The notes under the pieces were generated by a model, which saw only the letters and a program-made list of their open reading frames with translations, was not told the DNA's origin and searched no databases. From Phycisphaerae bacterium (GTDB lineage: Bacteria; Planctomycetota; Phycisphaerae; Phycisphaerales; Phycisphaeraceae), in the NCBI GenBank assembly GCA_030426385.1, contig JAUHYI010000002.1:62001-126000 (forward strand): 64,000 nt of DNA, given 5' to 3'. Positions 46,496 to 63,644 of this stretch are shown piece after piece. The first letter of the stretch is position 1. Each line of letters begins with the position of its first letter. Made by a program: the position numbers and the translations under genes.

Positions 46496-48020
46496 CGGCG
46501 GTTTCCTCCGGGTCAAGTCCTTCCAGCATGGTTGCTTCCTGAAGGTCTGCCTGTAAATCGTCACGATCTGCGCCCTCTGGAAGCAAACGCAGCGCATTCG
46601 CCGCAGCCTCACGGCCACCCGGGAAGGAACCAGCCATGAAATTAGCCTTCGCGAGCCACCGGTAAAAGCTTGCTTTTATTTCGTCTGAGTCTGGCAATGA
46701 AACCGCGGCAGCCGTGGCATCCCCGAAAGCACGCGCTGCGGTGCGATTGTCCCTCCGCTCTAAGAGGAGTCGCCCCAGTGTGATGGCTGCGCCCACATGG
46801 ATGCGCGTGTCCGCCGATCGGCCATTCTTGGTCGAGAAATGGATCGCTGATTGCAGGCGTGAGATTGCCGAGAGAGTACCCCCTGTCTCATGAAGATCAG
46901 TCGCGGCGCGTACCATTGCTTGCAGATACTCATTGGTATCGCATTCTTCGCGTGCGGCATGCAGATTTTCGATTTGCTGGTTTCCGAATGAACGGGCCTG
47001 CTCCTGATAGTCAAGAAGCGTTTTTTTGCTGCTTGATGCGTCCTCGGCCTTTTGCTTGGCTACCGTTTGAAGCATTCGAACCATCACACGCTCTGGCATC
47101 GGGTCGAGTGTCGCGAAAGCACCCCGCCTAACGACAGAGTTGACGTGCCAGACGAGGCGGTTCTCGGCAAAGACTTCACGGTGCCGATCCACTTCGCGTC
47201 GGACCCAAGGCATCTGGAGTTCGGGAATAATGCCTTCGTATTCATCGCCCCGATCCTGCGGAAACTCGAAGTAAATCGTAATGATGTTGCGTTGGATGTC
47301 GAGAAAAACTTCACGTGTGTAATAATGTCGCCACCAATGCATGAGTGACTCTACGTTGAGATCGAGCGTTTCGGCTTGTGACCGGAGTGCTCGATGCTGT
47401 GCCTCATCAAGGATGTCGCTGAGCCGGAGAAGTGCTGACAGCAGACGAAGGCGTCGTGATCCGCTCTGTGTCCCGACCAGTTCCGCATAGCGGGCCGACT
47501 CAGTATCAACCACATGGGACTCAGCAACTGCGGCAATTTCACCCGCATAGTCGGAGTCGTCTAGCGCCAACCCAATCGGTGGTAACGTGTAACCAGTTCT
47601 GTCGAACCTGCGGCTTGCGATGATCATGTCAGCTGATACTTCGTGGTGTCGCTGGCGAATAAGATCAAGACGACGTTCGTCAGATAGTTCTGACCAGGCT
47701 GTCCCGCTCTCAGCCAGTGCTGTCGCTAAACGACCATGCTCTCCCGCGCGTTCATTGTGCATCCCAACATCGTGGGTATAGCATGCGGCATAAAGGATGA
47801 AGGCCTCGTCCTCTCTCAATCGCTTGTCTTCCGGCAATGCATCCGAGAGCGTTTCTACGAGTTGGACAACACGATCTGAATGACTAACAGAATGATCAGT
47901 AAAATGCCGGTGCACACGGTTGGCAAGGATCGGTGCGATTTTGTCGCGAAGAGTCCTTAGACGAGCCGCACGGTCGGGTCCACAGAATTTGAAACTTGGC
48001 TCAGACATACTGACCGTCAT
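46488..48020 (-). CDS. HD-domain protein with C-terminal TPR-like region (possible conflict effector)
   Basis: 510 residues. Metal ligands of an HD phosphohydrolase/nuclease fold are present in order: H47 (VSHSDRVV), H83-D84 (ACYTHDVGMHNE), H125/H126 (RQRHHEVS), AVAESHVV, and LLRLSDILDEAQ with the final Asp. The arrangement with YTHDVGM and RLSDILDEA recalls the HD-CE group described as effectors in bacterial conflict systems with NTPase regulators; this is my reading, not a search result. The C-terminal 150 residues look like TPR units (AISRLQSAIHFSTKNG, AARAFGDATAAAVSLPDSD). An in-frame ATG four codons later (48008) is an alternative start. It is coupled to the HEAT protein downstream. Confidence 0.78.
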   Translation of the reverse strand: MTVSMSEPSFKFCGPDRAARLRTLRDKIAPILANRVHRHFTDHSVSHSDRVVQLVETLSDALPEDKRLREDEAFILYAACYTHDVGMHNERAGEHGRLATALAESGTAWSELSDERRLDLIRQRHHEVSADMIIASRRFDRTGYTLPPIGLALDDSDYAGEIAAVAESHVVDTESARYAELVGTQSGSRRLRLLSALLRLSDILDEAQHRALRSQAETLDLNVESLMHWWRHYYTREVFLDIQRNIITIYFEFPQDRGDEYEGIIPELQMPWVRREVDRHREVFAENRLVWHVNSVVRRGAFATLDPMPERVMVRMLQTVAKQKAEDASSSKKTLLDYQEQARSFGNQQIENLHAAREECDTNEYLQAMVRAATDLHETGGTLSAISRLQSAIHFSTKNGRSADTRIHVGAAITLGRLLLERRDNRTAARAFGDATAAAVSLPDSDEIKASFYRWLAKANFMAGSFPGGREAAANALRLLPEGADRDDLQADLQEATMLEGLDPEETADA

Positions 48021-49424: not shown

Positions 49425-49601
49425 GACATAATGCCTCGAATTCTCGATCATCTGATTATATTGTGTGCCAGCCTCTCTAAACCAGTATCCCACGTATGGT
49501 ATTTCATAAATGAAGACACGAAGCACGCCCCAACCGTCATTTTAATTAATTAACGTCGCAGCATGGGTAGCCTGTACATAGCAGATAAACTGGTGACTAA
49601 G

Positions 49602-50459
49602 ATGCCGGGACGCAAAAACGACAGTTTCACTGACATGATTTTGGACGCCATGTATCGAGGACCATGGTGGCTGGGCTTCTTTGTCGCTACAGCGTTTTAT
49701 GGGTTCCTCCAGTTTGTTATTCCCGGTCTGCTTTGGCTGGTGCAATGGCGATTTGCAGACCAGTCACTAACAGTGGCAATGCTTGACGGTTTTATACACG
49801 GCTCACGAATTCTTGCACCGTTTGCATTTGGACTTGGTCTGATACTCTGGTTGTTGGCCCGAATTCCCAGATGGATTCATCGTCGAAGGCTGGATCGTCA
49901 GACAGGTATTGATTCAATCCGCCAACTATCGTGGCGACAGTTCGACTTTCTGTTGGCGGAGTATTTTAGGCGTCAAGGGTATCGTGTTGAGGAAACCGCC
50001 GACGGCCCTGACGATGGTATCGATCTTTATCTGTCCAAATCAGGCGTAAAAAGCCTCGTTCAGGCAAAACATTGGAAGACATGGCGGGTTGGCGTCCGAA
50101 CGGTACGCGAATTACTCGGTGTGATGGTCAGTGAAGAAGCCAACGATGCATGGCTGATCACATCGGGCAAGTTTACCACACCTGCGATGGAATTTGCTGA
50201 CAAGAACCATATCCACCTCATTAATGGTCTGCAATTGGTTGACATGATTCGCGCAGTTCAGAAAAGCAAAACAGAACCTGATTCAACATGCCTGGGCTCA
50301 CCCCAACCATCCATACAGTCGCCTTCGTGCCCCCAATGCGGTCAACCTATGCACAAGAAAATGGCCCGACGCGGACAGCATACCGGCGACGAGTTCTGGG
50401 GTTGCTCTCAATTTCCCAAGTGTCGTGGGATTGTTGCGATACATGAGTCGCCCAATTAA
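49602..50459 (+). CDS. Membrane-anchored Mrr-type restriction endonuclease with zinc-ribbon end
   Basis: 285 residues from the ATG at 49602 (GGTGA upstream; another ATG at 49563). Two membrane helices (PWWLGFFVATAFYGFLQFVIPGLLWL and ILAPFAFGLGLILWLLARIP) come first. The Mrr_cat nuclease domain follows: LSWRQFDFLLAEYFRRQGYRVEETADGPDDGIDLYLSKSGVKSLVQAKHWK, with the catalytic D-G-I-D and Q-A-K, then VRELLGVMVSEEANDAWLITSGKFT. The C-terminus is a topoisomerase-type zinc ribbon (CPQCGQPM ... GCSQFPKCRG). Such proteins cut modified foreign DNA. It is the only island gene on the plus strand, lying between the HTH gene (divergent) and the giant helicase (convergent). Confidence 0.92.
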   Translation: MPGRKNDSFTDMILDAMYRGPWWLGFFVATAFYGFLQFVIPGLLWLVQWRFADQSLTVAMLDGFIHGSRILAPFAFGLGLILWLLARIPRWIHRRRLDRQTGIDSIRQLSWRQFDFLLAEYFRRQGYRVEETADGPDDGIDLYLSKSGVKSLVQAKHWKTWRVGVRTVRELLGVMVSEEANDAWLITSGKFTTPAMEFADKNHIHLINGLQLVDMIRAVQKSKTEPDSTCLGSPQPSIQSPSCPQCGQPMHKKMARRGQHTGDEFWGCSQFPKCRGIVAIHESPN

Positions 50460-50631: not shown

Positions 50632-53600
50632 TTACTCATTCGTGGAAATTCGTACCCAACCTGTTTTCGTTTTTCGTTCGATGCAAACGTGACCAAGCAA
50701 CACTCTAGGCTCTTCTTGTATCAACGCGGCAAATCGCTGAGGCCGTGGACCGAATAGAAAGTCCGCCATTACCGTAAATGTGCCAACTAGCAGAATTCCG
50801 TGGCCTTTCGGTGATCTCAGCGCGAACATGGATTTAACATTGCCGATTCTGTTTCCAGATTCTCGTTTGAGCCATCGCTCGAGACCGGACACTCGTTGGG
50901 CTTTGACTTTTCCGTCGAAAGCCATCTGAATCAAACGAAATTCTCCTGTTGATTTTGAAATTAGAGGTTCTGCCATGGCGAAACCTGTAGCGGCACATTG
51001 TCTCGATTGTCCAGGCAATATTGGGCCTACCCAAGGACAAATGATCGCCTCATCGGGCATGCATGGACGCTCATCGATCACTGATCGAACAACAACAGTA
51101 GGTGACATGAATTCGCCTGACACCGCACTTCGGACAAGCTTATCTTTTCGAATGCTTTTGCCTGTGACGCAACATATTGACAAAAGATCGGGTCGGACGA
51201 AATCACCGGTTAATTCACAGGCGCCCAACTCATTAGGCAAACCTTTATCGCCAGTTACAACGCAAGCCTTCAGATAACGCGGCAAAGCTGCCAATCCAGA
51301 TATGTCGCTGGTTGCGAGCAAACGTTTGTCTACATGCCAACCACTTTCGGCACATACGCCCATCTCAGACGGCAACAATCGGCGGTTAGTTTCCTTGCAT
51401 ATCGCCATACATTCTGGCAGGCATTTTAGCGTAGACGCTTCAGAGGACTCAAGAAGTTCCGAGTCAACGAGTTTTCCACTGACCATACAGCGCGCTACTT
51501 CATCGCGCAGTAGCAATCTGCCAGAAGCCTCACATGTCATCATTTCATTGGGTAAGCCTATGCGACCACTTCGCTCAGACTTTGCTGCCTTCTCAATAGG
51601 GCTGTACTTGTTGCTGAGTGATGATTGCAGCACTTCATCAAGTAAAGCTCGTTTGCCAGCAGATGTTTCAACAGACTCACTGATGTGGGCGATGCGGCCA
51701 GTCAAGTCTGAGGTAATGGCCTCGTCCTGACGGAAGCATTTTCCCGAAAAATCACTTTTGACTATCTCATCGATTAAAACCATGTCGCCTGTGAAATCAC
51801 ATTTATGAAGTTCGCTTGTGAGGCCGAAGCGGCTACTTAACTGGGACTGATGTAAAAGCGATCGTTCAACAACTTTGCCTGAGACATCTGAGCGACCAGA
51901 TTCTTCTGGCAGCAGAACCTTCGAAGTCACTTCGCATTGCAAGGCCTCATCAGGCAAGGCAAATTTGCCACTCACGTCTGACTTGGCCATCAGATCAACA
52001 TCAGCTCGTTTGCCAGTAATAGCACACCGTTCGGCTTCATCGATTAGCAATTGTCGCTGGCTCAGTGAGCATGTAATCACTTCGCTCTTAGCGCCACATC
52101 GACCTGATTTTTCAGATCGCACCTCTTCCCCGATTGGAATAATTTCCTTACTGCCTTTTACTTCTGATCGTCGGAACTCATCCACCAGGGATTCCCGTCC
52201 GTCCGGCAACACCTCGATTTCTGATTTATGGCCAACTCTTGCAGAAATCGAGGAATAATGCGCCGCATCTTTTCGCATTACTTTGCCGGAAACGTCGCTC
52301 TTGACTGTCTCATCAATCAAAACCATATCTCCAGAGAATTCACACTTTTGAAGTTCATGTTCGAGACCCAACCGGCTGCTCAACTGGGACCGATGCAAAA
52401 GCGATTGCTCAACCAGCTTGCCCGACACATCGGATCGGCCAGCTTCTTCGGGCAGAAGTACCTTTGAAGTCACTTCGCACTGCAAGACCTCATCAGGCAA
52501 CGCAAATTTTCCACTTACATCTGATCGAACCATCAGATCAATATCAGCTTTCTCGCCTGTAACGGCGCATGATTCTATTTCGTCAATCAGTAGCTGCTTG
52601 TGGCTAATAAAACATAGAACTGATTCTCTTTTGGAACCATACCGTCCGGATTTATCTGATCGTACTTCCTCACCTAGTGGAATGATTTCCTGGCTGTTAA
52701 TGACGTCGGATTGCCGCACCTCGTCGAGTAAAGCGACTCGCTCATCGCATAAATCATGTGATTCCGATGTATGGCCGATCCGACCGGTAATTGATGATGT
52801 GCGGGCTTCGTCCATCCGCATTGCTTTTGCTGATACGTCGCTTGTCACCACCTCATTGCATAGAACAATGTCGCCCGTGAATTCGCACGTGACCATTTCC
52901 TCAGGCAATGCGAGTAATGTGCTCAGCTCTGAAGGCAGCAAGAGTTTTTGATCAACACGCTTACCTGAGACCGATGAAACGGCGACCTGGTCGGGAAGTA
53001 GCATCTTGCCGCTGACTTCGCATTTCACAAGCTGATCGGGCAATACCAGATGACCATCCTCAGCTTTTGCCAAGCGAGATAGTTCGACGGTTTTCCCGGA
53101 CACTGAACAAATGCCTACTTCATCGCTGAGCAATTTTGAGCCTGTCATGTCGCAAACAGCCATCTCGTCAAGCGCCCCCACTCGATGCGGTGCCTGCTCA
53201 GACGTGACGGTGCGATCATGCCGTATGACTCGATTGCTCATATCACTTGTAACTGTTTCTTCTGGTAAAACCCAATCGCCAGTCAATTCACACTTTACAA
53301 AATCATCATTGTGACTACGTTTGTTTGAAATCGGAGATTGACGCAATTGATCAATACGTGATTTCATTCCTGTCACGTCACTAACCACCAGCTCACCCGG
53401 CAAAACCCAGTCATCAGTATATTCACATTGAGTGAGTTCCTCTTTTAGAGCACGACCATTGGATGCCACTGACTTTATCAAAAGATCGCGGTCCACCAAT
53501 CGATTACTGGCATCTGATTTTTGAAGTTCGTCAGAAATTAGCCGGGTACCCGATGCTTCGCATACGGCTGTATAGGCAGCAAGTGCGCGCCGTCCACTTT

Positions 53601-56370
53601 TGCTTGATTTCACCAACAAATGATCCAAAACATAGTCATTTGTGACACAACATTTTGATAAACATGATTCGGGAACGATCCGATTCGTGACTTGGCAAGT
53701 CGCCATCTTGGGTTCTTCAAGTATTTCTCCGATAGCAGGTATTGCTTTTAGTGCAATTGAATATGACCCTTGATCATCTATTGCAAATGTGACGGTGATA
53801 TGCTGGGTTTGATAGCAATTTCCTTCAAGTCCAACAAGTTCTGCGTTGGCCAATGGTTGAAAATCAGATTTCGCACGTCGGGCTTGCGGGCTATCGTCGC
53901 CAATGCGTAACAATTCGTCTTTCAATCGCATCTCATAAAATCCGGCAAAGTCATTAACATCCTTGTCTGTTTCAACGGCCTTTTGGATAGATGGAGCGAT
54001 GGCGGCCATTTTATTGCCCGCCATTGGTTGATGCATTGATTTTTTGTGATTAAGAGCGCATGAACTGATCTGATCGTTATCTGTCTCACGAACTTTTACT
54101 GAAATCAGCTTTTCATAACTGTCAACGCCGTTACTGACCGTCGCCTTAGCAATAGCTTGTCCACTGAAATGCTCGTTCAATACCTTAATTTGGGTATTCA
54201 GAACACAACTGCCTGCAATCTTTCTTATCCAATTTTCGACAAATTGTTCAGTAATCGCAGACGAAGTGATGTCGTTGATAAGTTGGCCCGATCGTTTCGC
54301 CCAATTATTGACATGGCGTTCAAAATCCGTCTTGCCGGGATAATACAACTTTGCCTGAGGAAATCGGTGTCGAATGTCTCGCCAACGCAGCGGATCAAAT
54401 GTGAAAAGTTCTGCATTTGACCCACCGCCGATTGCAGCATAGAGCATTTCGCCACGTTGGTCGATTTCTTTACCAGCTTGGGCATACATTTGATAAATGA
54501 ATTCTTCGAAGGATAAAGAGGGAGCAAAGCGATTCAGCTTTGGACATGAGGGGCCACTGTCGTGCAATTCATCAAGACGGCCAAGATTCTGGTCCATTTC
54601 TTCGCGACTTGCTTCCAGATCGAGTTTAGCCTGCTCAATACTTTCCGCTATGCGTTTTGCAGCTTCATCATTATTTACACCCAAGAGTGATTTAACCACC
54701 AGGTCACGAATAACGCTTTCAAACTGGTCGCCCTCATCACCTTGACCACGCGATGTGGATTCTAAAATGGATTCCACATCACCAACTGTCGAAGCCACAG
54801 CCTGTAGCTTTTCCATGAGTGTGGCAACGATTTTATGTTCAACCGATCCCTCCACGATGAGGTTGAACACCACGACGTGCTTATATTTAGAACCAAGACG
54901 CTGGATGCGTCCAATGCGCTGTTCGACGATCATCGGATTCCATGGCAGATCAAAATTAACCAATGTATTGGTCACTTGCAGGTTGACACCTTCTGCACCG
55001 GAATCTGTTGAAACAATGACGTTAATATCAGGGTTATCTTTGTGAAATCGTTCAATTACATCGCGATTGCCTTGCGTATTACCGCCCTCGATAAATCCGA
55101 ATTTCACGCCAGCTTCTATCAGTGCACGACCAATGGCCCGTTGTGTGGCTCGACGAATCGTAAAAACCAGCAGTCGCCAGTCACTTCGTTGCTTTTGAAG
55201 CTCATGAATTATTTGCAAAAGACCATCTATTTTGGCCGGGCGACCACTTTGGGCAAGTTCCCACGCGCGACCTGATACGGCTTCCCATCTATCGGGCCGG
55301 CGTTTTGCCATATTGGTTATTTGGTCAGCTAGCGCGTCAGGGCTGCTGAATAATGCTCGTAATACAGAAGACTGCTCTAGGCCGTTTAGATCTTCCAGAA
55401 TGCCCTTCACCAGTTCATTTAGCTCTATCTCAACATCCGTCGGAGGGACGGTAAAAAGTCGAACGTGACGCGTAGGAAAAACTAGGTTTGCATCGGCGCG
55501 CCTGGTTCTCGCAATAAATTTCCGCAAAACGCCGCGAAACGTTTCTTCAGTACCAGGTCTTAAAAGACGAGCTTTGTCATTCCCTAAAAAATACGATTTG
55601 AATTCATCTGGATTTCCCAAGGGATGGTGATCTTTCCCCTGCGCAGCATTCAGGCAGTCAATTAGCGAATAAAGATCCCATAGCCTGTTTTGAATGGGTG
55701 TAGCGGTTAATAGAAGCACATACTTAAAGAAACTCGCTTCCAGTGCTTCTCGAATGCGCGTTGCCATTACAGGTGTTTTGGGACTTCCATGCAGATTTCT
55801 GATCTTGTGCGCCTCATCAATGATGAGCATATCGAACGTATTGGATGGCAAAAGCGGCAAACGCGGACATGCGGTGTGATAAGTGCTTACAACGACTGAA
55901 GTCTCTGAGTCGACAGCGTCCTCAAAATTTTTACCACCCGTCGCGAAGACGGCATCTATGCCAAATCTAACCTTGAGCTCCTCCACCCACTGTGACCCGA
56001 GTATGCTTGGGCAGATCACCATGGCTCTTAGGACTTTGCGCCGAGACATGAGTTCACTGAGTATTAAGCCGGCACTTATTGTTTTTCCCAGTCCGACATC
56101 ATCGGCGATTAGTGTCACCGGCAGGCGTCGACAAAATGTGATGAGGTTCCGAATCTGGTGGGCAAATGGTTTGAAATCGGGATGCCATGTATGTTTGGAT
56201 TCAAGGTCGCTCTCATCATGAATAATGATTGGATTGGCCAGGCTCCACTCATGAGCTGCCAAATGCAAACGGTATTCGGCGTCAATCCCTGTCGGCTTTA
56301 AAGGGTTTACTGTCACGTTTGTACACTGAACAGGCGTTATCTTATGTGATTGTTTTTTTTGAGTTCCCAT
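50632..56370 (-). CDS. Giant SNF2/HepA-type helicase with about 59 tandem 15-residue repeats
   Basis: 1912 residues. Residues about 60-560 form a superfamily 2 SNF2/RapA-like motor: motif I ADDVGLGKT (89-97), DEAH box (IIDEAHK, 185-188), LLLTATPIQNRLWDLYSLID, STDSGAEGVNLQV, and motif VI QRIGRIQRLG (484-493). Residues about 560-890 are helical and mixed. Residues 892-1777 are an array of roughly 59 units of 15 residues with consensus [C/S]-[D/E]-V-[S/T]-G-K-x-x-L-P-D-E-L-V-x, some units starting with Cys and others with Ser. Residues about 1800-1912 are a small C-terminal domain. Part of the array is arranged as three copies of a higher-order repeat of about 181 residues. It is the last gene of the run from 64000 leftward; a 122-base gap precedes it. 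It is probably a defence-related DNA translocase; the role of the array is unknown. Confidence 0.9.
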   Translation of the reverse strand: MGTQKKQSHKITPVQCTNVTVNPLKPTGIDAEYRLHLAAHEWSLANPIIIHDESDLESKHTWHPDFKPFAHQIRNLITFCRRLPVTLIADDVGLGKTISAGLILSELMSRRKVLRAMVICPSILGSQWVEELKVRFGIDAVFATGGKNFEDAVDSETSVVVSTYHTACPRLPLLPSNTFDMLIIDEAHKIRNLHGSPKTPVMATRIREALEASFFKYVLLLTATPIQNRLWDLYSLIDCLNAAQGKDHHPLGNPDEFKSYFLGNDKARLLRPGTEETFRGVLRKFIARTRRADANLVFPTRHVRLFTVPPTDVEIELNELVKGILEDLNGLEQSSVLRALFSSPDALADQITNMAKRRPDRWEAVSGRAWELAQSGRPAKIDGLLQIIHELQKQRSDWRLLVFTIRRATQRAIGRALIEAGVKFGFIEGGNTQGNRDVIERFHKDNPDINVIVSTDSGAEGVNLQVTNTLVNFDLPWNPMIVEQRIGRIQRLGSKYKHVVVFNLIVEGSVEHKIVATLMEKLQAVASTVGDVESILESTSRGQGDEGDQFESVIRDLVVKSLLGVNNDEAAKRIAESIEQAKLDLEASREEMDQNLGRLDELHDSGPSCPKLNRFAPSLSFEEFIYQMYAQAGKEIDQRGEMLYAAIGGGSNAELFTFDPLRWRDIRHRFPQAKLYYPGKTDFERHVNNWAKRSGQLINDITSSAITEQFVENWIRKIAGSCVLNTQIKVLNEHFSGQAIAKATVSNGVDSYEKLISVKVRETDNDQISSCALNHKKSMHQPMAGNKMAAIAPSIQKAVETDKDVNDFAGFYEMRLKDELLRIGDDSPQARRAKSDFQPLANAELVGLEGNCYQTQHITVTFAIDDQGSYSIALKAIPAIGEILEEPKMATCQVTNRIVPESCLSKCCVTNDYVLDHLLVKSSKSGRRALAAYTAVCEASGTRLISDELQKSDASNRLVDRDLLIKSVASNGRALKEELTQCEYTDDWVLPGELVVSDVTGMKSRIDQLRQSPISNKRSHNDDFVKCELTGDWVLPEETVTSDMSNRVIRHDRTVTSEQAPHRVGALDEMAVCDMTGSKLLSDEVGICSVSGKTVELSRLAKAEDGHLVLPDQLVKCEVSGKMLLPDQVAVSSVSGKRVDQKLLLPSELSTLLALPEEMVTCEFTGDIVLCNEVVTSDVSAKAMRMDEARTSSITGRIGHTSESHDLCDERVALLDEVRQSDVINSQEIIPLGEEVRSDKSGRYGSKRESVLCFISHKQLLIDEIESCAVTGEKADIDLMVRSDVSGKFALPDEVLQCEVTSKVLLPEEAGRSDVSGKLVEQSLLHRSQLSSRLGLEHELQKCEFSGDMVLIDETVKSDVSGKVMRKDAAHYSSISARVGHKSEIEVLPDGRESLVDEFRRSEVKGSKEIIPIGEEVRSEKSGRCGAKSEVITCSLSQRQLLIDEAERCAITGKRADVDLMAKSDVSGKFALPDEALQCEVTSKVLLPEESGRSDVSGKVVERSLLHQSQLSSRFGLTSELHKCDFTGDMVLIDEIVKSDFSGKCFRQDEAITSDLTGRIAHISESVETSAGKRALLDEVLQSSLSNKYSPIEKAAKSERSGRIGLPNEMMTCEASGRLLLRDEVARCMVSGKLVDSELLESSEASTLKCLPECMAICKETNRRLLPSEMGVCAESGWHVDKRLLATSDISGLAALPRYLKACVVTGDKGLPNELGACELTGDFVRPDLLSICCVTGKSIRKDKLVRSAVSGEFMSPTVVVRSVIDERPCMPDEAIICPWVGPILPGQSRQCAATGFAMAEPLISKSTGEFRLIQMAFDGKVKAQRVSGLERWLKRESGNRIGNVKSMFALRSPKGHGILLVGTFTVMADFLFGPRPQRFAALIQEEPRVLLGHVCIERKTKTGWVRISTNE
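51040..53697 (-). repeat. Coding tandem array: 45-bp units, with a 543-bp higher-order repeat
   Basis: DNA for the 15-residue repeats of the helicase. Successive units differ at DNA level, but a block of 12 units recurs three times: cysteine codons of equivalent units lie at 53152-53154, 52612-52614 and 52069-52071, spaced 540 and 543 bases. The second and third blocks are the most alike (compare 51901 onward with 52444 onward), which suggests the most recent duplication. Two 29-residue and one or two 17-residue irregular units recur in each block. Confidence 0.9.
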
Positions 56371-56492: not shown

Positions 56493-58586
56493 TCAGCAAG
56501 AATCCGTTTCGAAGTCTTCAATAAATTCAGAGCCTGGGCTTATTCCGCTAACAAGCAAATGGTCTCGCGCCCGTGTACATGCCACATAAAGCAAGTGTCG
56601 TTCTGATTCATAGATGGATTCAAGATCGGCTTCGTCGCCAACAGAATTAATTCTGACGTGCGATGGGACAATGTCATCATCACATGCGGCAACGACCACG
56701 GCTTTAAACTCAAGGCCTTTGGCGTCGTGCATCAATCCGATGGCCACAGATCCTTCATCCGTTGAGCCTTGACTTTGAATTCGGCAACTGCTTAGTTTGG
56801 CCTCACGCACGGCTGCACTGGCGCGAGAGATTTCATTTTCACTTCGAACGAACACGGCCACTTCATGAGGAAGTAAGCCATCTGCAGTGCGTTCTTTCAG
56901 CCACGCGGCTATTTGATTCTGTTCATTGATTTCAGAATCAGCGATGCAAATTGACGGATGCGGGCCGTTAAATGCGGATATAGTGCCCCGCCGTTCGTCA
57001 GTGAGTCCATCCACATCACTGACATTGGCTGCCAGCAACTTGTCCGCCAACTGCCGAATTTGATGTGAGGTGCGGTAGTTCACCTTCAATGTCTGCGATC
57101 GCCCGCGAACATCGACGCCAAGCGATTTCCATGAAAACGGCATTTGAAATATCTGCTGCCCTAAATCACCACTGAAAAACAGACCATCTTTTGTGTCGCC
57201 TGCCACACTGGCAAGGAATCGCAATTGGGGAATTTTTATGTCTTGTGCCTCATCGACGAGTATATGCATTGGTGCCTTGACGACACCGTCATTTACCTGT
57301 CGAGTGGTTTCGGCAAATACGTATGCCATGGTGACTAGGCCGCCGCGATGTAATGATTCAATCACCTCGCTGAAAATCTGCCACGCCGCTTGCCGTTGTT
57401 TTTCACCCAGCCGCGTCTTGCGTCCGAGCCTTACCACATCACGGTACATCTTCCATGTTTGAATTTGCCATGGGTCGACAATGTCATGCCACTCTGCCAG
57501 TAAGAATTTCATTGAAAATCGATGGTCGGATACTGCATCGGATGCCTGTTGCAAGAGCGTTCGAATCATCCCAGGCGTCGCAACACGAGCCTGATCGACA
57601 GCGTTTTCATAAAGTTCCAGGCCTACCTCATCAATTGATCGAACTTTAATACGATCAGTTAGCAATTGATTCTGGCCAACCAGTCGAGCCAGTTTTTGGC
57701 GTAGCATTCGCGCCAAGGTGATCGAAAACGTCGTCAACAGGATTTCATCATTTTCATATCGCCTGGCAAGTTCGACAGATCGATGCAAGGCCACGATCGT
57801 TTTGCCGGTACCGGCCGAACCCAGCACACGTGCCGGCCCATTAAATTCGCTTTCCACGATTTGCCGTTGCGTGGGATGCAAAAAGACAGCCCATTGATCC
57901 CATGGATAATCGAGGGCTTGTTGCAATTCCTCAGTCGATGCCACCAGTCGGAATCGCCGCTGGGCATCGGGATGTTCGAATGGATCAGTTTCCTGATGCA
58001 CATCTACAACGGCAGGTGTCTCGCCCACGGCTAAGGCAAGCAGCGCTTCCGCAGCCTCGGCCGGCAAATGATCTGCAATGTCAAGTAAGCGGTCTTCGTC
58101 AGCTGCTTTGACGGTTTCCAACCAATCTTGCGGCACGCCATACGACAGCAATTGCTCATCGCCCACTCCGGCAAGCACACTTGCTTGTTCAATCTTGTGA
58201 GGTGCTGTCTGAATATCACGCGATGCGGCTTCCTTCGGCTTCTCAATCTCGAGTACCGTCTCACGAATTTCAACAAACTGCGCGGCCCCTGTTTTCGGAT
58301 GCGTTTCCAGCCGCCGCCGGTGGGCCCATGCGTACGCCTGATCATGGTGATCCACGTAGCACAGCAACATACTGTCGCCAGTCTTGTGCACAATCATCCG
58401 CAGATCGCGACTGACGCGCACCGACCAGAAATGCGAATCTTTGGACGACGTGATACGCTCGAAACTCTTACCACTGCCAACAGGATCAACCTGGAAATCA
58501 AAAGCGGTTTGCTTGGCCCGTTTCTGCTCATCATTGGTAAGCTTGGCTAGGCTATTTGTAAATGTGTGTGCGATTCGGAATTGCAT
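56493..58586 (-). CDS. RelE-like domain fused to a UvrD/Rep-type helicase
   Basis: 697 residues. Residues 1-90 look like a RelE/ParE toxin fold: FTNSLAKLTNDEQKRAKQTAFDFQVDP, then SVRVSRDLRMIVHKTGDSMLLCYVDHHDQAYAWAHRR, the usual 'R...R-x-I-x-x...V-x-H-x-x-A-Y' order. From about residue 210 a superfamily 1 helicase follows: HPTQRQIVE, Walker A GSAGTGKT (256-263), ILVDEAQDIKIPQ (motif II), KVNYRTSHQIRQLADKLL (motif IV), MHDAKGLEFKAVVVAACDDDIVP, and RHLLYVACTRARDHLLVSG (motif VI). It probably unwinds DNA or RNA at a target chosen by the first domain. It follows the GHKL gene by 36 bases on the same strand. No antitoxin is present. Confidence 0.9.
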   Translation of the reverse strand: MQFRIAHTFTNSLAKLTNDEQKRAKQTAFDFQVDPVGSGKSFERITSSKDSHFWSVRVSRDLRMIVHKTGDSMLLCYVDHHDQAYAWAHRRRLETHPKTGAAQFVEIRETVLEIEKPKEAASRDIQTAPHKIEQASVLAGVGDEQLLSYGVPQDWLETVKAADEDRLLDIADHLPAEAAEALLALAVGETPAVVDVHQETDPFEHPDAQRRFRLVASTEELQQALDYPWDQWAVFLHPTQRQIVESEFNGPARVLGSAGTGKTIVALHRSVELARRYENDEILLTTFSITLARMLRQKLARLVGQNQLLTDRIKVRSIDEVGLELYENAVDQARVATPGMIRTLLQQASDAVSDHRFSMKFLLAEWHDIVDPWQIQTWKMYRDVVRLGRKTRLGEKQRQAAWQIFSEVIESLHRGGLVTMAYVFAETTRQVNDGVVKAPMHILVDEAQDIKIPQLRFLASVAGDTKDGLFFSGDLGQQIFQMPFSWKSLGVDVRGRSQTLKVNYRTSHQIRQLADKLLAANVSDVDGLTDERRGTISAFNGPHPSICIADSEINEQNQIAAWLKERTADGLLPHEVAVFVRSENEISRASAAVREAKLSSCRIQSQGSTDEGSVAIGLMHDAKGLEFKAVVVAACDDDIVPSHVRINSVGDEADLESIYESERHLLYVACTRARDHLLVSGISPGSEFIEDFETDSC

Positions 58587-58622
58587 CTCAATTTCACAAG
58601 CTTTGATGTGTTAGTTGCCTAT

Positions 58623-60590
58623 TTAATCAAAAAGGCCATCACTGTCATTTGGAGGTGTAAGAAAGCTGTCAAGTTCTTGTTGATGCTCCTTAAAAAATGG
58701 CGCTTCTTTGACTCGTTCACGAAGGCGCAGAAGACGGCTATCTGCACGCGCCAGCACGTTCGCGAAGAGCATTGGCCTGATCTCTACCTGCCGATCTTTT
58801 TCCCACCTTGCCTCCTCCTCATGGGTCGCAATAGTTTTGCCCAAGGCGAAACAACGGATGGACTGAGTTCTATTCGTTAAATGGCCTGTTGAGAACAACT
58901 CTTTTATGTACTTCCAAGATTGAGCTTTTTCATCGCTCCCGATTGAGACGCCAGGCCTCTTGAGCTCAATGATCACCAATCGGTCGGTTCCGCATTCTCC
59001 ACCGTTCGTATCAAAGAAGGGGTAGGAGTAGAGGCCGGCCGTTCCGTCAGGCAAAATCGCAAAACCAGGCCGGTTTCGACTTCCCTTTCCGTCGGGATTC
59101 TTAAAAAGCTTTTGGACAACAGTCGTCATGCTTTGGTTGGACGTATATTCAATCGTCTCGAACTCTGGACCAAAAACCCATAAGGCCTTCTCGAATAAAG
59201 GCTGAAGCTCTTGGACCTCTAGCGTCGCATCACTGTTCGTGCGGTGTCGGAGCTCTTCGACGAGCTTGAGACGTTGCTCAATCTCATCCAATACAGCCTT
59301 TGCCATATCGAGGGTCCATCGCTCAAGCATTTCATGTAGTTCGTCGAGTTGATCTGGCCCGTACTGACTCAATGTGCCAAGTAACGCATACCCCGATTTG
59401 GATTGTTCCAGATTCACCACAATCTCGGAGAGCTTCACAACATCGGCTTCCTTAATGGATGGACACTTCACCTGTACCTCATTTACAAAAGTCGTCCAAT
59501 TCTCACGTCCCAACGGGCCAATGTCTTTGAGTTTGGTACGATTGTGCTCCCGTGCCCTTGCAACTGTTGCCTTACGATCATCTTCTGAAACCGATGTCAT
59601 ATGATCTCGAACGCGGTTATGTACAACCAAAGATGCATCAGCAAATGACTGATTATCTGGATCGAATCCAGACCAATCCGGCTTGATTGCGCCAGAGTCA
59701 GCCAAATGATCTGCTCTCACAATGAAGGTAAATCGCTTTGCGGCGATTCGTCGGCCATCAACAAAATCCTGAAGACCAGCACCCTTCCACGAACACTCTC
59801 CGACCAACCGTCCACCAACATGCCAAGCAAGACCGTGTTGCCGCGTTGATTTATCGGTCAGATGCGTATCGATCACGATTAGATCGACTGTCTTGTCGCC
59901 AGGAACATCAAGTGTAAGCTTCTCAATGTTCGGATCATCAATATCCTCAAAAGAAACCTTTTGCTGATTCACCGTGACAACGAAGCTTGGGTTAGTCAGA
60001 AAACGCATTCCAATCTCGGCTCTGGCATCTTCCGCTGACAAATTTATTTTGCGAGGATTAGTACAACTGATCGTCGTGCCATCTTTGTCTGAATTGACAT
60101 CGGCGAGCAATTGCATGATCTCAAAAGGCTGGTCTGTACCTCGACTTACGCGATACTTGTTTCGCTTGCCTGCTTTATGGGTATCTACCTCATATGATTC
60201 GCCGAAGCAGAATCCAGACCAACGCCCAACACCGTTTCTACCGAAAGCGATTCGTTGTGCTTCGTGCTCACTTACAGCCGGTGGAAACAACACCAGTTCA
60301 CCGAACTCCTCACGACGGTTGTAGTTTAACGTCCGCCAGCGATGCCGAAACTCTTCGTCGGTCATACCAACCCCGTCATCCTGAATGCTGAACCGTTTTA
60401 TTCCAGGCCCGTCCGGCCAAGTGATCTTGACATTGCGAGCTCCGGCATCCCATGCATTGGCGATCAATTCAATAATGGCGGTTTTTGGATCAAGTAGTAT
60501 CTGGCTTCCAGCGTGCGTTTCGAGAAATCTCGGCGCGTACAGAACTCCGTCAAGAAGCGGAAGCTGCGATTGGTCTACTTTTTTTGCCAT
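58623..60590 (-). CDS. GHKL (MutL/Hsp90-like) ATPase with C-terminal nuclease-like domain
   Basis: 655 residues. The N-terminal ATPase has the three GHKL boxes: IIELIANAWDAGARNV (N box), FSIQDDGVGMTDEE (G1) and FGRNGVGRWSGF (G2 lid). The middle (about residues 210-440) is a transducer-like region. The C-terminal 200 residues have ELQPLFEKALWVFGPEFETIEYTSN, then RNRPGFAILPDGT...TDRLVIIELKRPGVSIGSDEKAQSWKYIKEL, a likely PD-(D/E)xK nuclease with E-x-K in IELKRP, comparable to DUF4263/Shedu-like ends. It begins 15 bases after the methyltransferase and precedes the UvrD gene, so it belongs to this operon. Paralogous GHKL proteins are common in defence loci; specific function is not known. Confidence 0.85.
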   Translation of the reverse strand: MAKKVDQSQLPLLDGVLYAPRFLETHAGSQILLDPKTAIIELIANAWDAGARNVKITWPDGPGIKRFSIQDDGVGMTDEEFRHRWRTLNYNRREEFGELVLFPPAVSEHEAQRIAFGRNGVGRWSGFCFGESYEVDTHKAGKRNKYRVSRGTDQPFEIMQLLADVNSDKDGTTISCTNPRKINLSAEDARAEIGMRFLTNPSFVVTVNQQKVSFEDIDDPNIEKLTLDVPGDKTVDLIVIDTHLTDKSTRQHGLAWHVGGRLVGECSWKGAGLQDFVDGRRIAAKRFTFIVRADHLADSGAIKPDWSGFDPDNQSFADASLVVHNRVRDHMTSVSEDDRKATVARAREHNRTKLKDIGPLGRENWTTFVNEVQVKCPSIKEADVVKLSEIVVNLEQSKSGYALLGTLSQYGPDQLDELHEMLERWTLDMAKAVLDEIEQRLKLVEELRHRTNSDATLEVQELQPLFEKALWVFGPEFETIEYTSNQSMTTVVQKLFKNPDGKGSRNRPGFAILPDGTAGLYSYPFFDTNGGECGTDRLVIIELKRPGVSIGSDEKAQSWKYIKELFSTGHLTNRTQSIRCFALGKTIATHEEEARWEKDRQVEIRPMLFANVLARADSRLLRLRERVKEAPFFKEHQQELDSFLTPPNDSDGLFD

Positions 60591-60605
60591 ATGTCCTGCT
60601 CCGCT

Positions 60606-63600
60606 CTATTCCACCCGAAAAACCTTCATCACCTCATCGCCTAAATGGTTGATCACTTTCACCGCAATCCTTCCGCCTTCGGGCTTGGCGAATTCTCGGG
60701 ATGTGTCGCTGTGCAGGCTCTCCCACGCTTCCTGATCGATCTCGGCTTTGAGCGTCGTCTTCAAGCTCTTGTACGGATCGTTGGCGCCGAGGAAATAGGC
60801 CTGCCGCACGAAGAAGCTTTCCTCGTTGTAGTCGGTATCGATAAACCAACAGGCGATGCCGTCGGCGTCGTCGCTGCGGACTTCGCCGGTCGCGGGATGG
60901 AACACGTCGACGCCATTGATGCGCACGCGAATCTGGCTGTACTTGGATAGATCCGCATCTTCCGGCGCATCCTCGGGTAGCAGAATGTCGATGTCCGGCT
61001 CGCCGAAGATGACGAACAGGTTGCCCTTGCCGGTATTTTTCAGATCGTCCGCCATGTGCAGGTCAGCATTCATGCGAGCCTTGAGCACGGGGATGCGTCC
61101 GAGCTTGCTGAATTCCGACGCCAGCGCTTCGTAGTTAAACGCACAGGCGATCACCACATCGAAATCCGCATCGCCTGCCTCGCGTGCGGCCATGACCAGA
61201 TCCTGCCTGGCCACGGTCCCGAATTCCGGGCCGATGAAGATCGCCGCCCGTTTATCTTTCGCTTGGCCCTTGTCCAGCTCTTCGTCGGTCCCTTCCACAT
61301 AGCGACCCTCGGCACAGATGAAATGCCCCGGCCAGGGCTTGATCGAATTGAACGTGATCTTGTCGCCCTTGTGCGCCTGTTGCACGCCGGCCGTTTTGAG
61401 GTTCTCCAGAATGACGCTGGCAAAATCGTCCGGGCTCGCGTGCGGGTCGGCTACTTTCGACTTGCCATGCTGGTCCTGCGGGTCGATCAATTCATCATCC
61501 GCGCCCACCCCCAACACCCGATGCGGGCTCAGCGATTCCACCGTGAACGGCCCGGCCACTCGCACCTTCTTCTTGTCCTCGTAAGGCTTGTCATAGAGAT
61601 ATTCAAAGTCAGCCCTGGCGGCAATCGAGGCGTCGATTTCCTTCTGACGCTGGATACGCTGCTCCCACCATTGTTCGTGCGCATCCTTGGCATCGGCCGA
61701 CCATTTCGCATCGGCGTCACGTGGGATTTCCCATTCTTCCCACTTTTGTTTGAGCGCTTTATTGAGTTTTTCACGCAGCGGTTCGAGACGCTCTTGAAAC
61801 CGTTCCCAGATCACGTCGATTTCACTGTTATTGGCGATCGATTTAAGCGTGATGTGCGGTACACGTTCATACACAAATCCCTGACGAATGGATGCTGACG
61901 AGCCGCGACCGCGAGGGAGCGGGCCCGCTTCCTGACGGGCGCGGCTCGTTTCAGGCAATTCCGTTCGCGTGATCTGCGCCTCTTTCTCGCGGCCCTCAAG
62001 CGAGTCGGCGAGCAGGTAATACGGATAGCGGGCGCCCATGATCCGTGCCCGCGCTAATGCCAGACTCACCCGCGAGGTGTCGATCGTGATCCACCGCCGA
62101 CCCCACTGCTCGGCCACATACGCCGTCGTCCCCGACCCGCACGTCGGGTCCAGCACCAGGTCCCCGGGGTCCGTGGCCATGAGGAGGCAACGCTGGACTA
62201 CTTTTTCCGTTGTCTGCACAACATATACTTTGTTCAAACCACTTCCTGTCGCTGTATCAGTCCACAGATTCGACAGCGGAGTAGACGACGAGTCCTCGAG
62301 GAAACGGATGTAGCTTAGAGATGTCTTACCTGCTGCAACGCGATTAGCTTTGATTGCGCGAAGCATGCCTTCTTCCTGAATTCCCCACCACCTCGATTTG
62401 CTTGTGAATCTCTTACCTTCCAACACCACCTCGTACTTCGCACCAGGCCCCGGCTTTGTCAAATTGTCGTATCGAAATACCCGCATGCCTTCCGGCAGGG
62501 GCACTGATCCGGCCTGTTCATCGCGTGTGATTCGTCTGGCGGACAAGTCGGGAAACAGTCCTTGCACATAAGCGTCTGCACCATCTCCGCCAAGAGCTTT
62601 TTCCAACCTCAGCGAGCGGATCTTCACGGAATCGGCTGCTTTGGCGTACCAAAGAATGAAATCGTTTTGCCGCGGTATCGTGACGCTTCCGAGTCCAGAA
62701 GACTTGACGACAATGAGTTCAGAAATGAAGTTGCCATCCCCAAACACCTCATCCATCACTGCTCGCACGCGGTGGACGTTTTCGTCGCCGATCTGGACGA
62801 AGATCGAGCCGGTGTCGTGGAGCAGGTCGCGGGCGGCGGTGAGGCGGTCGCGGAGGTAGGTCAGATAGGAGTGGATGCCGTCGCGCCAGGTATCGCGGAA
62901 GGCTTTGACCTGTTCGGGTTCGCGGGTGATGTGGTCGGCCTTGCCGTCCTTGACGTCGCGGGAGGTGGTGGACCACTGGAAGTTGGAATTGAACTTGATG
63001 CCGTAGGGCGGGTCGAGGTAGATGCACTGGACCCCCCCACGTAGTCCCTCGCGCTCCGCCAGTGATGCCATAACCGAGAGCGAGTCGCCGAGGATCATGC
63101 GGTTGGACCAGTGGGCGTCGTGTTGATAGAACTCGGTCTTGGCTTCGAGATCGTCGGGCAGGCCGTTGAAGTCGGCGAAGAGGTCGAATTGTTCGCCGGT
63201 GAAGGGGGCATCGCCGGCGCGGGCAGCATCGACGGCCTTGCGGGCAATCTCAGCGGCTTCGGTCTGACGCCGAAGGTCGTCGATGAGCACCTTGGGATGG
63301 ACCTTCTCCTGAATGAACAGCGGCGGAGCCTGCACAACAAGATTAGCGTCATCAAAAGCGTCCTGCCCGTCTTGATTGTCCTGGGCGTATTTGCCCCGCC
63401 AGATGAGCTGCGGATCGAGATCGCGATTGCGTTGTTGCATTTCGTCCTCAAGCGGATTCGTCGTGTTGCCCTGGGCATCGGTCATGCCCGGCCGAGGATA
63501 GGTCACCGGCACGGGCTTCTGATCATCCTTGTGCATGATCGACTCAAACTCTGCGGTGGGAATGTTCTTGCGCGAAGCCTCGGTGTGCTTGAGGGCCTGG

Positions 63601-63644
63601 ACGTCTTTTTTAGTGGGAGATTTTTTAGTGCGTTTTTTGGCCAT
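60606..63644 (-). CDS. Type III-like site-specific DNA methyltransferase (Mod)
   Basis: 1012 residues, longer than most Mod subunits. It has the beta-class order: catalytic motif DPPYG (211-215) in GGVQCIYLDPPYGIKFNSNF comes before the AdoMet-binding motif DPTCGSGTT (499-507). The family methylates adenine or cytosine amino groups (N6-A or N4-C). Residues about 585-1012 (FVYERVPHITLKSIANNSEID ... ) are the long C-terminal extension found in a subgroup of these enzymes, ending with GGRIAVKVINHLGDEVMKVFRV. At about residues 566-582 a palindromic repeat element has been inserted in frame. No Res (endonuclease-helicase) subunit is next to it; a GHKL ATPase, UvrD and SNF2 helicase follow instead. 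The GmrSD-like gene lies 7 bases upstream. Confidence 0.93.
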   Translation of the reverse strand: MAKKRTKKSPTKKDVQALKHTEASRKNIPTAEFESIMHKDDQKPVPVTYPRPGMTDAQGNTTNPLEDEMQQRNRDLDPQLIWRGKYAQDNQDGQDAFDDANLVVQAPPLFIQEKVHPKVLIDDLRRQTEAAEIARKAVDAARAGDAPFTGEQFDLFADFNGLPDDLEAKTEFYQHDAHWSNRMILGDSLSVMASLAEREGLRGGVQCIYLDPPYGIKFNSNFQWSTTSRDVKDGKADHITREPEQVKAFRDTWRDGIHSYLTYLRDRLTAARDLLHDTGSIFVQIGDENVHRVRAVMDEVFGDGNFISELIVVKSSGLGSVTIPRQNDFILWYAKAADSVKIRSLRLEKALGGDGADAYVQGLFPDLSARRITRDEQAGSVPLPEGMRVFRYDNLTKPGPGAKYEVVLEGKRFTSKSRWWGIQEEGMLRAIKANRVAAGKTSLSYIRFLEDSSSTPLSNLWTDTATGSGLNKVYVVQTTEKVVQRCLLMATDPGDLVLDPTCGSGTTAYVAEQWGRRWITIDTSRVSLALARARIMGARYPYYLLADSLEGREKEAQITRTELPETSRARQEAGPLPRGRGSSASIRQGFVYERVPHITLKSIANNSEIDVIWERFQERLEPLREKLNKALKQKWEEWEIPRDADAKWSADAKDAHEQWWEQRIQRQKEIDASIAARADFEYLYDKPYEDKKKVRVAGPFTVESLSPHRVLGVGADDELIDPQDQHGKSKVADPHASPDDFASVILENLKTAGVQQAHKGDKITFNSIKPWPGHFICAEGRYVEGTDEELDKGQAKDKRAAIFIGPEFGTVARQDLVMAAREAGDADFDVVIACAFNYEALASEFSKLGRIPVLKARMNADLHMADDLKNTGKGNLFVIFGEPDIDILLPEDAPEDADLSKYSQIRVRINGVDVFHPATGEVRSDDADGIACWFIDTDYNEESFFVRQAYFLGANDPYKSLKTTLKAEIDQEAWESLHSDTSREFAKPEGGRIAVKVINHLGDEVMKVFRVE
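61893..61955. repeat. Palindromic element inserted in frame in the methyltransferase gene
   Basis: GAGCCGCGACCGCGAGGGAG (61900-61919) and the inverted counterpart ending CGCGGCTC (61940-61947) form a hairpin around GGGCCCGC. Flanks extend the symmetry (GCTGAC... and ...GTTTCAGG). Its translation, SRARQEAGPLPRGRGSS, is unlike the flanking conserved protein. It differs from the GTTAGCCGCCGC family. From memory, similar GAGCCGCGACCGC repeats are common in planctomycete genomes. Confidence 0.75.

What the first reader, a model, noticed from the sequence alone, without database searches (positions are those of the whole stretch)
51040..53697. About 59 tandem 15-residue Cys/Ser repeats in a SNF2-type helicase
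Seen: residues 892-1777 of the helicase at 50632-56370 divide almost perfectly into 15-residue units with consensus [C/S]-[D/E]-V-[S/T]-G-K-x-x-L-P-D-E-L-V-x, with few irregular units (14, 16, 17 or 29 residues). Nothing I know of in RapA, DISARM or other SNF2 helicases carries such an array. A fixed 15-residue period suggests a solenoid, or strings of half zinc knuckles in which many Cys have become Ser. Inferred role: a long scaffold or surface that recognises nucleic acid or a phage component.
Basis: partly seen in the sequence, partly recalled or inferred. Interest (0 to 1): 0.88.

Follow-up and report, generated by a model that had tools for sequence, protein, structure and literature searches.

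The report
Defence-linked SNF2 ATPase with repeat arm
A bacterial SNF2-type DNA motor protein, of a kind found scattered beside restriction-modification and other anti-phage genes, ends in a long rigid-looking arm built from 59 copies of a 15-amino-acid unit that matches no family in the databases searched; the arm is present in every full-length relative found but varies in length.

Summary
ORF 50632-56370 (-) encodes 1912 aa, and residues 892-1777 are 59 units: 54 of exactly 15 residues, 5 of 14, and a few 1-2-residue slips. No Pfam, NCBIfam, PADLOC or PDB family covers the array. It defines an unnamed SNF2 subfamily: all complete or near-complete homologues at 34-48% identity, from at least six phyla, carry it after a RapA/BrxH-like ATPase. 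Most have 16-17 units with the same Cys/Ser order; planctomycete and a few other members expanded to 22-60. AlphaFold2 predicts a regular chain of hairpins (pLDDT about 90 in a canonical member). Cys-to-Ser is not random decay: C/S identity is conserved unit by unit, and Ser-1 of unit i goes with Glu/Asp-12 of unit i+1 (window 23/23). Charge pairs 14(i)-7(i+2) are opposite in 105 of 108 cases. The gene is patchy, horizontally transferred, and often beside type I, III and ISP restriction-modification, SIR2-HerA, OLD and nuclease genes. Best reading: an accessory defence translocase with a zinc-knuckle-derived structural arm that docks a partner or target. The role of the arm is inferred, not shown.

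The parts
50632..56370 (-). Complete gene: SNF2-family ATPase with C-terminal repeat array, 1912 aa
54751..56175 (-). SNF2/SF2 ATPase core (aa ~66-540), motifs DDVGLGKT, DEAH, LTATP, EQRIGRIQR present
   Evidence: Pfam PF00176 E 5e-22, PF00271 E 6e-17; alignment A1; nearest solved proteins archaeal Snf2/Rad54 and RapA
53698..54750 (-). Middle region (aa ~541-891): helices, then long antiparallel strands with helices inserted, resembling the RapA/BrxHII C-terminal alpha+beta domain
   Evidence: AlphaFold2 secondary structure of homologue L047 and of the window protein; comparison with PMC12839542 is by description only
51040..53697 (-). Array of 59 tandem 15-residue units (aa 892-1777)
   Evidence: AlphaFold2
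52213..52755 (-). First copy of the 181-residue (12-unit) higher-order repeat, aa 1206-1386
51670..52212 (-). Second copy of the 181-residue higher-order repeat, aa 1387-1567
50956..51039 (-). Two degenerate terminal units (aa 1778-1805), aligning with the conserved C-W-x-G and C-x-x-T-G end units of homologues
50635..50955 (-). C-terminal domain of about 100 residues (helices then beta strands) that closes the array in nearly all homologues
56493..58586 (-). UvrD-type helicase, same operon
58623..60590 (-). GHKL-ATPase (BbrUII/HgiDII-like, below cut-off), same operon
60606..63644 (-). Type III-like DNA methyltransferase (Mod), same operon; GmrSD_N/DUF262 and Res-type helicase genes lie upstream beyond the window

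Best explanation
The gene encodes a mobile, accessory SNF2-family ATPase of restriction-modification and other anti-phage loci. The ATPase half (RapA/BrxH/DrmD-like) most likely translocates on double-stranded DNA. The C-terminal half is a rigid arm of zinc-knuckle-derived beta-hairpin units held together by inter-unit pairs (1 of unit i with 12 of i+1; 14 with 7 and 3 with 11 of i+2), capped by a small domain. The arm most likely docks the motor onto its partner (a restriction-modification complex or nuclease) or onto the target. Its length is free to change by duplication of multi-unit blocks. Shown computationally: the array, its constancy in the subfamily, variable length, the Cys/Ser order, coupling statistics and genomic context. 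Inferred: metal independence of most units, translocation and docking.
For: Intact SNF2 motifs, and Pfam SNF2 and Helicase_C hits. All complete homologues carry the array: canonical string CCSCSSCSSCCC[C/S]SSCC with 16-17 units from Proteobacteria to Patescibacteria; expanded members 22-60. Regular hairpin prediction, pLDDT about 90 over the array of homologue L047 and about 80-87 over most of the window array. Ser-1 to Glu/Asp-12 at lag 1 is 0.91 against 0.16 for Cys, and about 0.45-0.5 at lags 2, 3, 5 and 6; 14-7 at lag 2 is 105 opposite, 3 like; 3-11 at lag 2 is 43 opposite, 3 like. Purifying selection. Neighbours: type III-like Res/Mod/UvrD (window, G106), type I R-M (G204, and hsdR in L051), type ISP R-M (L058), SIR2-HerA (L047), OLD (L053), PD-(D/E)XK or DUF2779/RNase H nucleases (L045, L046, L055, L058, L059, L065). 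Patchy (9/392, 3/398 and 2/287 genomes, weak hits included), with cross-phylum near-identity.
Against: Some members sit between housekeeping-type genes with no defence gene recognised (L048 Arenimonas, L063), so the defence link is by association. Of 12 Res-Mod-UvrD loci inspected only two carry this gene, so it is not a core subunit there. Pair statistics are inflated by shared ancestry: in the canonical block only about 5 S-sites and 8 C-sites are independent, and one S-site (unit 5) breaks the rule. AlphaFold2 coordinates could not be inspected, pTM is low (0.49, 0.38), and two window stretches (aa 1204-1290, 1371-1429) are poorly predicted.
Confidence: 0.6

Rival explanations
1. The array is a chain of working half zinc sites: single-Cys knuckles from neighbouring units share metal ions, and the array senses or needs zinc (or an Fe-S cluster).
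For: The second family (L043, L214-L216) and homologue G087 show the unit continuing in register into CxxC...CxxC ribbons. Canonical arrays have runs of Cys units (1-2, 10-13, 16-17), an extra invariant Cys in unit 1, and invariant His in units 9 and 16. The predicted-structure hits include a phage LIM-domain protein and a metallothionein-like protein.
Against: Position 4 is Ser/Thr in 96% of units. The S-units have no ligand. C/S choice follows a packing-type rule with residue 12. The window member has many S-S-C triplets.
Confidence: 0.2
2. A RapA-like transcription or RNA-polymerase recycling factor with an accessory arm, not a defence protein.
For: RapA is among the nearest solved relatives, and the middle region resembles the RapA C-terminal domain (against PMC12839542).
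Against: NCBIfam RapA score is 114-124 against a cut-off of 576. No N-terminal extension long enough for the tandem Tudor pair. Patchy occurrence, horizontal transfer and restriction-modification neighbours.
Confidence: 0.12
3. The array is a length-tunable spacer or molecular ruler that sets the reach between motor and effector; its sequence does not matter beyond folding.
For: Unit number varies 11-60 in multi-unit steps while the ends stay fixed. Core positions 1, 4, 8, 9, 12, 13 are conserved and 2, 7, 10, 15 vary.
Against: Canonical arrays keep not only length but unit-specific residues over several phyla, more than a spacer needs.
Confidence: 0.2

Closest known systems
DISARM DrmD / BREX BrxHI-BrxHII SNF2 helicases
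   Same: Same RapA-like SNF2 core and found in methyltransferase-linked defence loci; best PADLOC hits (DrmD 191 bits, BrxH 186 bits)
   Different: Array absent from those models; scores far below the NCBIfam DrmD cut-off (209 of 610); no drmB/drmC or brx partner genes among hits shown for the eight window genes searched
RapA (RNA-polymerase-associated SNF2 protein)
   Same: SNF2 core; predicted antiparallel-sheet domain with inserted helices after the core
   Different: No N-terminal Tudor pair, extra repeat arm and C-terminal domain; 124 of 576 bits
Zinc-ribbon / LIM-type zinc hairpins
   Same: Unit [C/S]xx[S/T]GKxV with a turn between two short strands has knuckle-hairpin form; the second family joins such units in register to a four-Cys ribbon
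   Different: One or no Cys per unit instead of two; no significant PDB fold match (LIM 2co8 only E = 2.1, prob 0.41)
Pentapeptide-repeat beta-solenoids (MfpA, Qnr)
   Same: Weak profile hits (MfpA E = 0.0028, QnrB E = 0.25); 15 is three times 5 and hydrophobics fall at 3, 8, 13
   Different: Positions 6 and 11 are charged where pentapeptides are small; predicted unit has a helical turn and hairpin strands; inter-unit couplings are not same-position as expected for stacked coils
Phage early proteins with knuckle-like C-termini (e.g. Klebsiella phage KpV48_08, PHROG 6980)
   Same: Foldseek prob 1.00, E 1e-6 to 1e-3 against predicted viral models; C-terminus has a CxxC ribbon followed by single-Cys stretches
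   Different: Unrelated N-terminal region, a few irregular stretches, TM-scores only 0.1-0.2, no sequence-profile match

Membership tests
SNF2-family ATPase | SNF2_N and Helicase_C domains with intact motifs | tested here: met
   PF00176 78.7 bits (cut-off 24.9), PF00271 62.3 bits (cut-off 23.5); motifs conserved in alignment A1
DISARM (DrmD) | Score above NCBIfam DrmD cut-off | tested here: not met
   208.6 bits against 610, and 166.8 against 950
DISARM (DrmD) | drmA, drmB, drmC neighbours | tested here: not met
   PADLOC scan of eight window genes: the only DrmA hit shown is the SNF2 protein itself, by its helicase part; no DrmB or DrmC among hits shown
RapA | Score above NCBIfam RapA cut-off | tested here: not met
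   114-124 bits against 576
RapA | Binding to RNA polymerase | not testable with these tools
   experiment needed
Zinc ribbon / zinc knuckle | Two CxxC knuckles forming a four-ligand metal site | tested here: not met
   Position 4 is S/T in 96% of 579 units, position 1 is C in 58%
Zinc ribbon / zinc knuckle | Hairpin around the knuckle turn | tested here: inconclusive
   Predicted strands flank the turn and there is weak 15(i)-7(i+1) coupling; coordinates not available
Pentapeptide repeat | Five-residue period with small residue at i-2 | tested here: not met
   Positions 6 (K/R) and 11 (D/S/E) are not small; no Pfam pentapeptide hit
Type III restriction-modification (window operon) | Mod methyltransferase and Res helicase in one operon | tested here: met
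   Mod 1377 bits to PADLOC MTase_III; ResIII domain protein upstream; Res-Mod-UvrD cluster conserved
Anti-phage defence system | Protection against phage | not testable with these tools
   context only

The most novel reading that the evidence does not exclude
A previously undescribed repeat class: a zinc-knuckle-derived, largely metal-free hairpin solenoid with a simple inter-unit pairing code (Ser-Glu or Cys-hydrophobic; swappable salt bridges two units apart) that serves as the length-variable target- or partner-reading arm of a new family of defence SNF2 translocases that plug into several restriction-modification types.
Probability: 0.35. Interest if true: 0.8.

Novelty: new variant of a known kind. 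Interest (0 to 1): 0.62.

Why it matters
If right, it adds an unnamed, widely transferred SNF2 subfamily to the toolkit of bacterial immunity, with a repeat arm that no searched database describes. A repeat with a 15-residue period and readable inter-unit pairing rules could also be a tractable scaffold for testing how metal-binding knuckles become metal-free solenoids, and for protein design.

Tried and rejected
A full-length single-sequence scan of genome contigs found no relatives; the alignment of the ATPase half did. Array searches of plasmids, phages and viral contigs found none. No PDB sequence match by phmmer and no significant PDB fold match. Weak array hits G622 and G241 do not show the repeat on reading. 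A stacked beta-solenoid with one coil per unit was considered; same-position couplings between neighbouring units were not seen, so a hairpin chain is preferred, but geometry was not measured. Random decay of zinc ligands was rejected because C and S are both conserved by unit. The array gene as a fixed subunit of Res-Mod-UvrD was rejected. The knotted solenoid of Brevundimonas (PMC13123833) was considered; it is a family of mostly 100-160 residues described as exclusive to one group of bacteria, with no link found.

Full report
What is there. The gene at 50632-56370 (-) encodes 1912 residues. Residues 66-540 are an SNF2 ATPase with intact motifs. Residues 892-1777 are 59 units, 54 of exactly 15 residues and 5 of 14, with a few single- or double-residue slips. 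The period is far above chance. The DNA itself is not repetitive. A 12-unit, 181-residue block is present twice, with dN 0.15-0.22 and dS 1.5-2.6 between copies, so the array is under purifying selection.

Relatives. A scan with an alignment of the ATPase half found full-length homologues at 34-48% identity in Planctomycetota, Pseudomonadota, Nitrospirota, Elusimicrobiota and several Patescibacteria-type phyla. Four more came from the window's own phylum. Every complete member, and a few frameshifted or split ones, carries the array at the same place. The standard form is about 1240 residues with 16-17 units, whose first residues read CCSCSSCSSCCC[C/S]SSCC in organisms from Bradyrhizobium to Paceibacterota. 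Expanded forms have 22-25 (L050, L054, L057, L058, G204), 32 (L061) and about 46-60 units (L044, L051, G042, window); unit counts for the most divergent members (G042, G087, L069, window) are split by the automatic segmentation and are approximate. The most expanded members fall mostly in a loosely supported planctomycete group (84/95). Each of the 14 genomes tested by a profile of the array had it in one gene only. Array hits occur in 9 of 392 genomes of the phylum, 3 of 398 around G435 and 2 of 287 around G436, including a few weak ones. Near-identical ATPase parts in Nitrospira and Nitrosospira, and a planctomycete copy inside a proteobacterial group, point to horizontal transfer.

Structure. 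AlphaFold2 of the C-terminal 712 residues of the Rhodopseudomonas homologue gives pLDDT 85.5 overall and about 90 in the array: each unit is a loop (1-6), a strand (7-9), a three-residue helical turn (10-12) and a strand (13-15). The window protein, with fewer informative relatives, gives 72.9 overall and about 80-87 over most of the array, with two poor stretches. No PDB entry matches significantly. Against predicted viral proteins Foldseek gives E down to 3e-6 with probability 1.00 but TM-scores of only 0.1-0.2; hits include phage proteins of unknown function and one named LIM domain. One of them, KpV48_08, has a CxxC ribbon followed by single-Cys stretches at its C-terminus. These hits suggest, but do not prove, a knuckle-hairpin fold.

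Inter-unit code. Reduced-alphabet mutual information over 628 units gives its strongest signals between position 1 of unit i and 12 of unit i+1, 14 and 7 two units apart, 3 and 11 two units apart, and 1 and 9 three units apart. Ser at 1 goes with Glu or Asp at 12 in 91% of cases, Cys in 16%; at lags 2, 3, 5 and 6 the Ser value is 45-50%, and at lag 4 68%. In the window all 23 testable Ser units obey. Opposite charges at 14/7 occur in both orders (85 and 20 cases) with 3 like-charged; at other lags like charges are 7-32. Caveat: the units are related by descent. Site by site in the canonical block, four of five Ser sites obey the rule and one does not, and charge pairs are opposite at six or seven unit sites, in reversed order at two of them. 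The P values printed by the script therefore overstate the case.

Zinc. The unit shares its register with a zinc-ribbon knuckle (CxxCG to [C/S]xx[S/T]G). A second, unrelated planctomycete family (L043:5297-6580, L214-L216) has three or four such units followed in register by a CxxC...CxxC ribbon, and homologue G087 has true zinc-finger-like segments on both sides of its array. A zinc-knuckle origin is thus likely. For most units a metal site is unlikely because at most one knuckle ligand is present. Units 1-2, 9-13 and 15-17 of the canonical array, which keep invariant Cys and His, could still bind metal.

Context. The window operon is Res, GmrSD_N, Mod, GHKL, UvrD, SNF2-array. Res-Mod-UvrD is a conserved cluster in 12 planctomycete loci inspected (Res or Mod lying at a contig or stretch end in some), of which only two carry the SNF2-array gene. 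Elsewhere the gene lies beside type I restriction-modification (G204) or hsdR (L051), type ISP restriction-modification (L058), SIR2-HerA (L047), HerA (L044), OLD (L053), and PD-(D/E)XK or DUF2779/RNase H nucleases (L045, L046, L055, L058, L059, L065). It also occurs beside apparently unrelated genes (L048, L060, L063). No enrichment statistic was computed. The gene behaves as an accessory that joins defence loci, not as a fixed subunit.

Mechanism. Shown by computation: ATPase motifs, array, length variation, conservation, coupling, context. From established knowledge of the family: SNF2 proteins couple ATP hydrolysis to translocation on double-stranded DNA. Inferred: the arm docks a partner or target, and its length sets reach or number of contacts. 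The array's net charge is near zero in most members and -33 in the window, which favours protein over DNA as the ligand. Position variability (low at 1, 4, 8, 9, 12, 13; high at 2, 7, 10, 15) fits a fixed core with a variable surface.

Known families. Scores fall far below the NCBIfam cut-offs for DrmD, DpdE, RapA and ZorD. A 2026 survey of BREX-type helicases describes SNF2 core, inactive nuclease-like domain and C-terminal alpha+beta domain for BrxHII and RapA, and the retrieved passages mention no such array (PMC12839542). Seven literature searches retrieved no description of it; the library is open-access only, so absence is not proof.

Noticed in passing
L043:5297-6580 (+), L214, L215, L216: A second planctomycete protein family (about 430-450 aa, no Pfam hit) contains three or four of the same 15-residue units running in register into a CxxC...CxxC zinc ribbon; possible evolutionary link between zinc ribbons and the array.
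   Followed up: partly
window 56493-63644 and L237-L246: Res, type III-like Mod and a UvrD helicase form a conserved cluster in 12 planctomycete loci with changing genes between Mod and UvrD; looks like a restriction-modification system with variable cargo.
   Followed up: partly
L045:7293-8807, L046:13655-15163, L055:7156-8562, L058:14027-15532, L059:13447-14955, L065:13640-15088: A roughly 500-residue nuclease-like protein (RNase_H_2 with PD-(D/E)XK, or DUF2779) recurs next to the SNF2-array gene, four times directly downstream on the same strand.
   Followed up: partly
window 49563-50459 (+) and L019:13715-14560 (-): Two related Mrr-type endonuclease genes flank the operon on opposite strands, about 27 kb apart.
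   Followed up: no
L053 and L055: Nearly identical SNF2-array genes in a Nitrospira and a Nitrosospira bin, two phyla: recent transfer (or a binning error).
   Followed up: no
L224:3323-5302: Klebsiella phage KpV48 early protein of unknown function (PHROG 6980) whose C-terminus has a CxxC ribbon followed by single-Cys stretches; a viral entry of the same phage and length is among the predicted-structure hits of the array model.
   Followed up: partly
window 46488-48020 (-): HD-CE domain protein with TPR-like tail next to a HEAT-repeat protein (44369-46618), possibly a separate two-gene unit.
   Followed up: no
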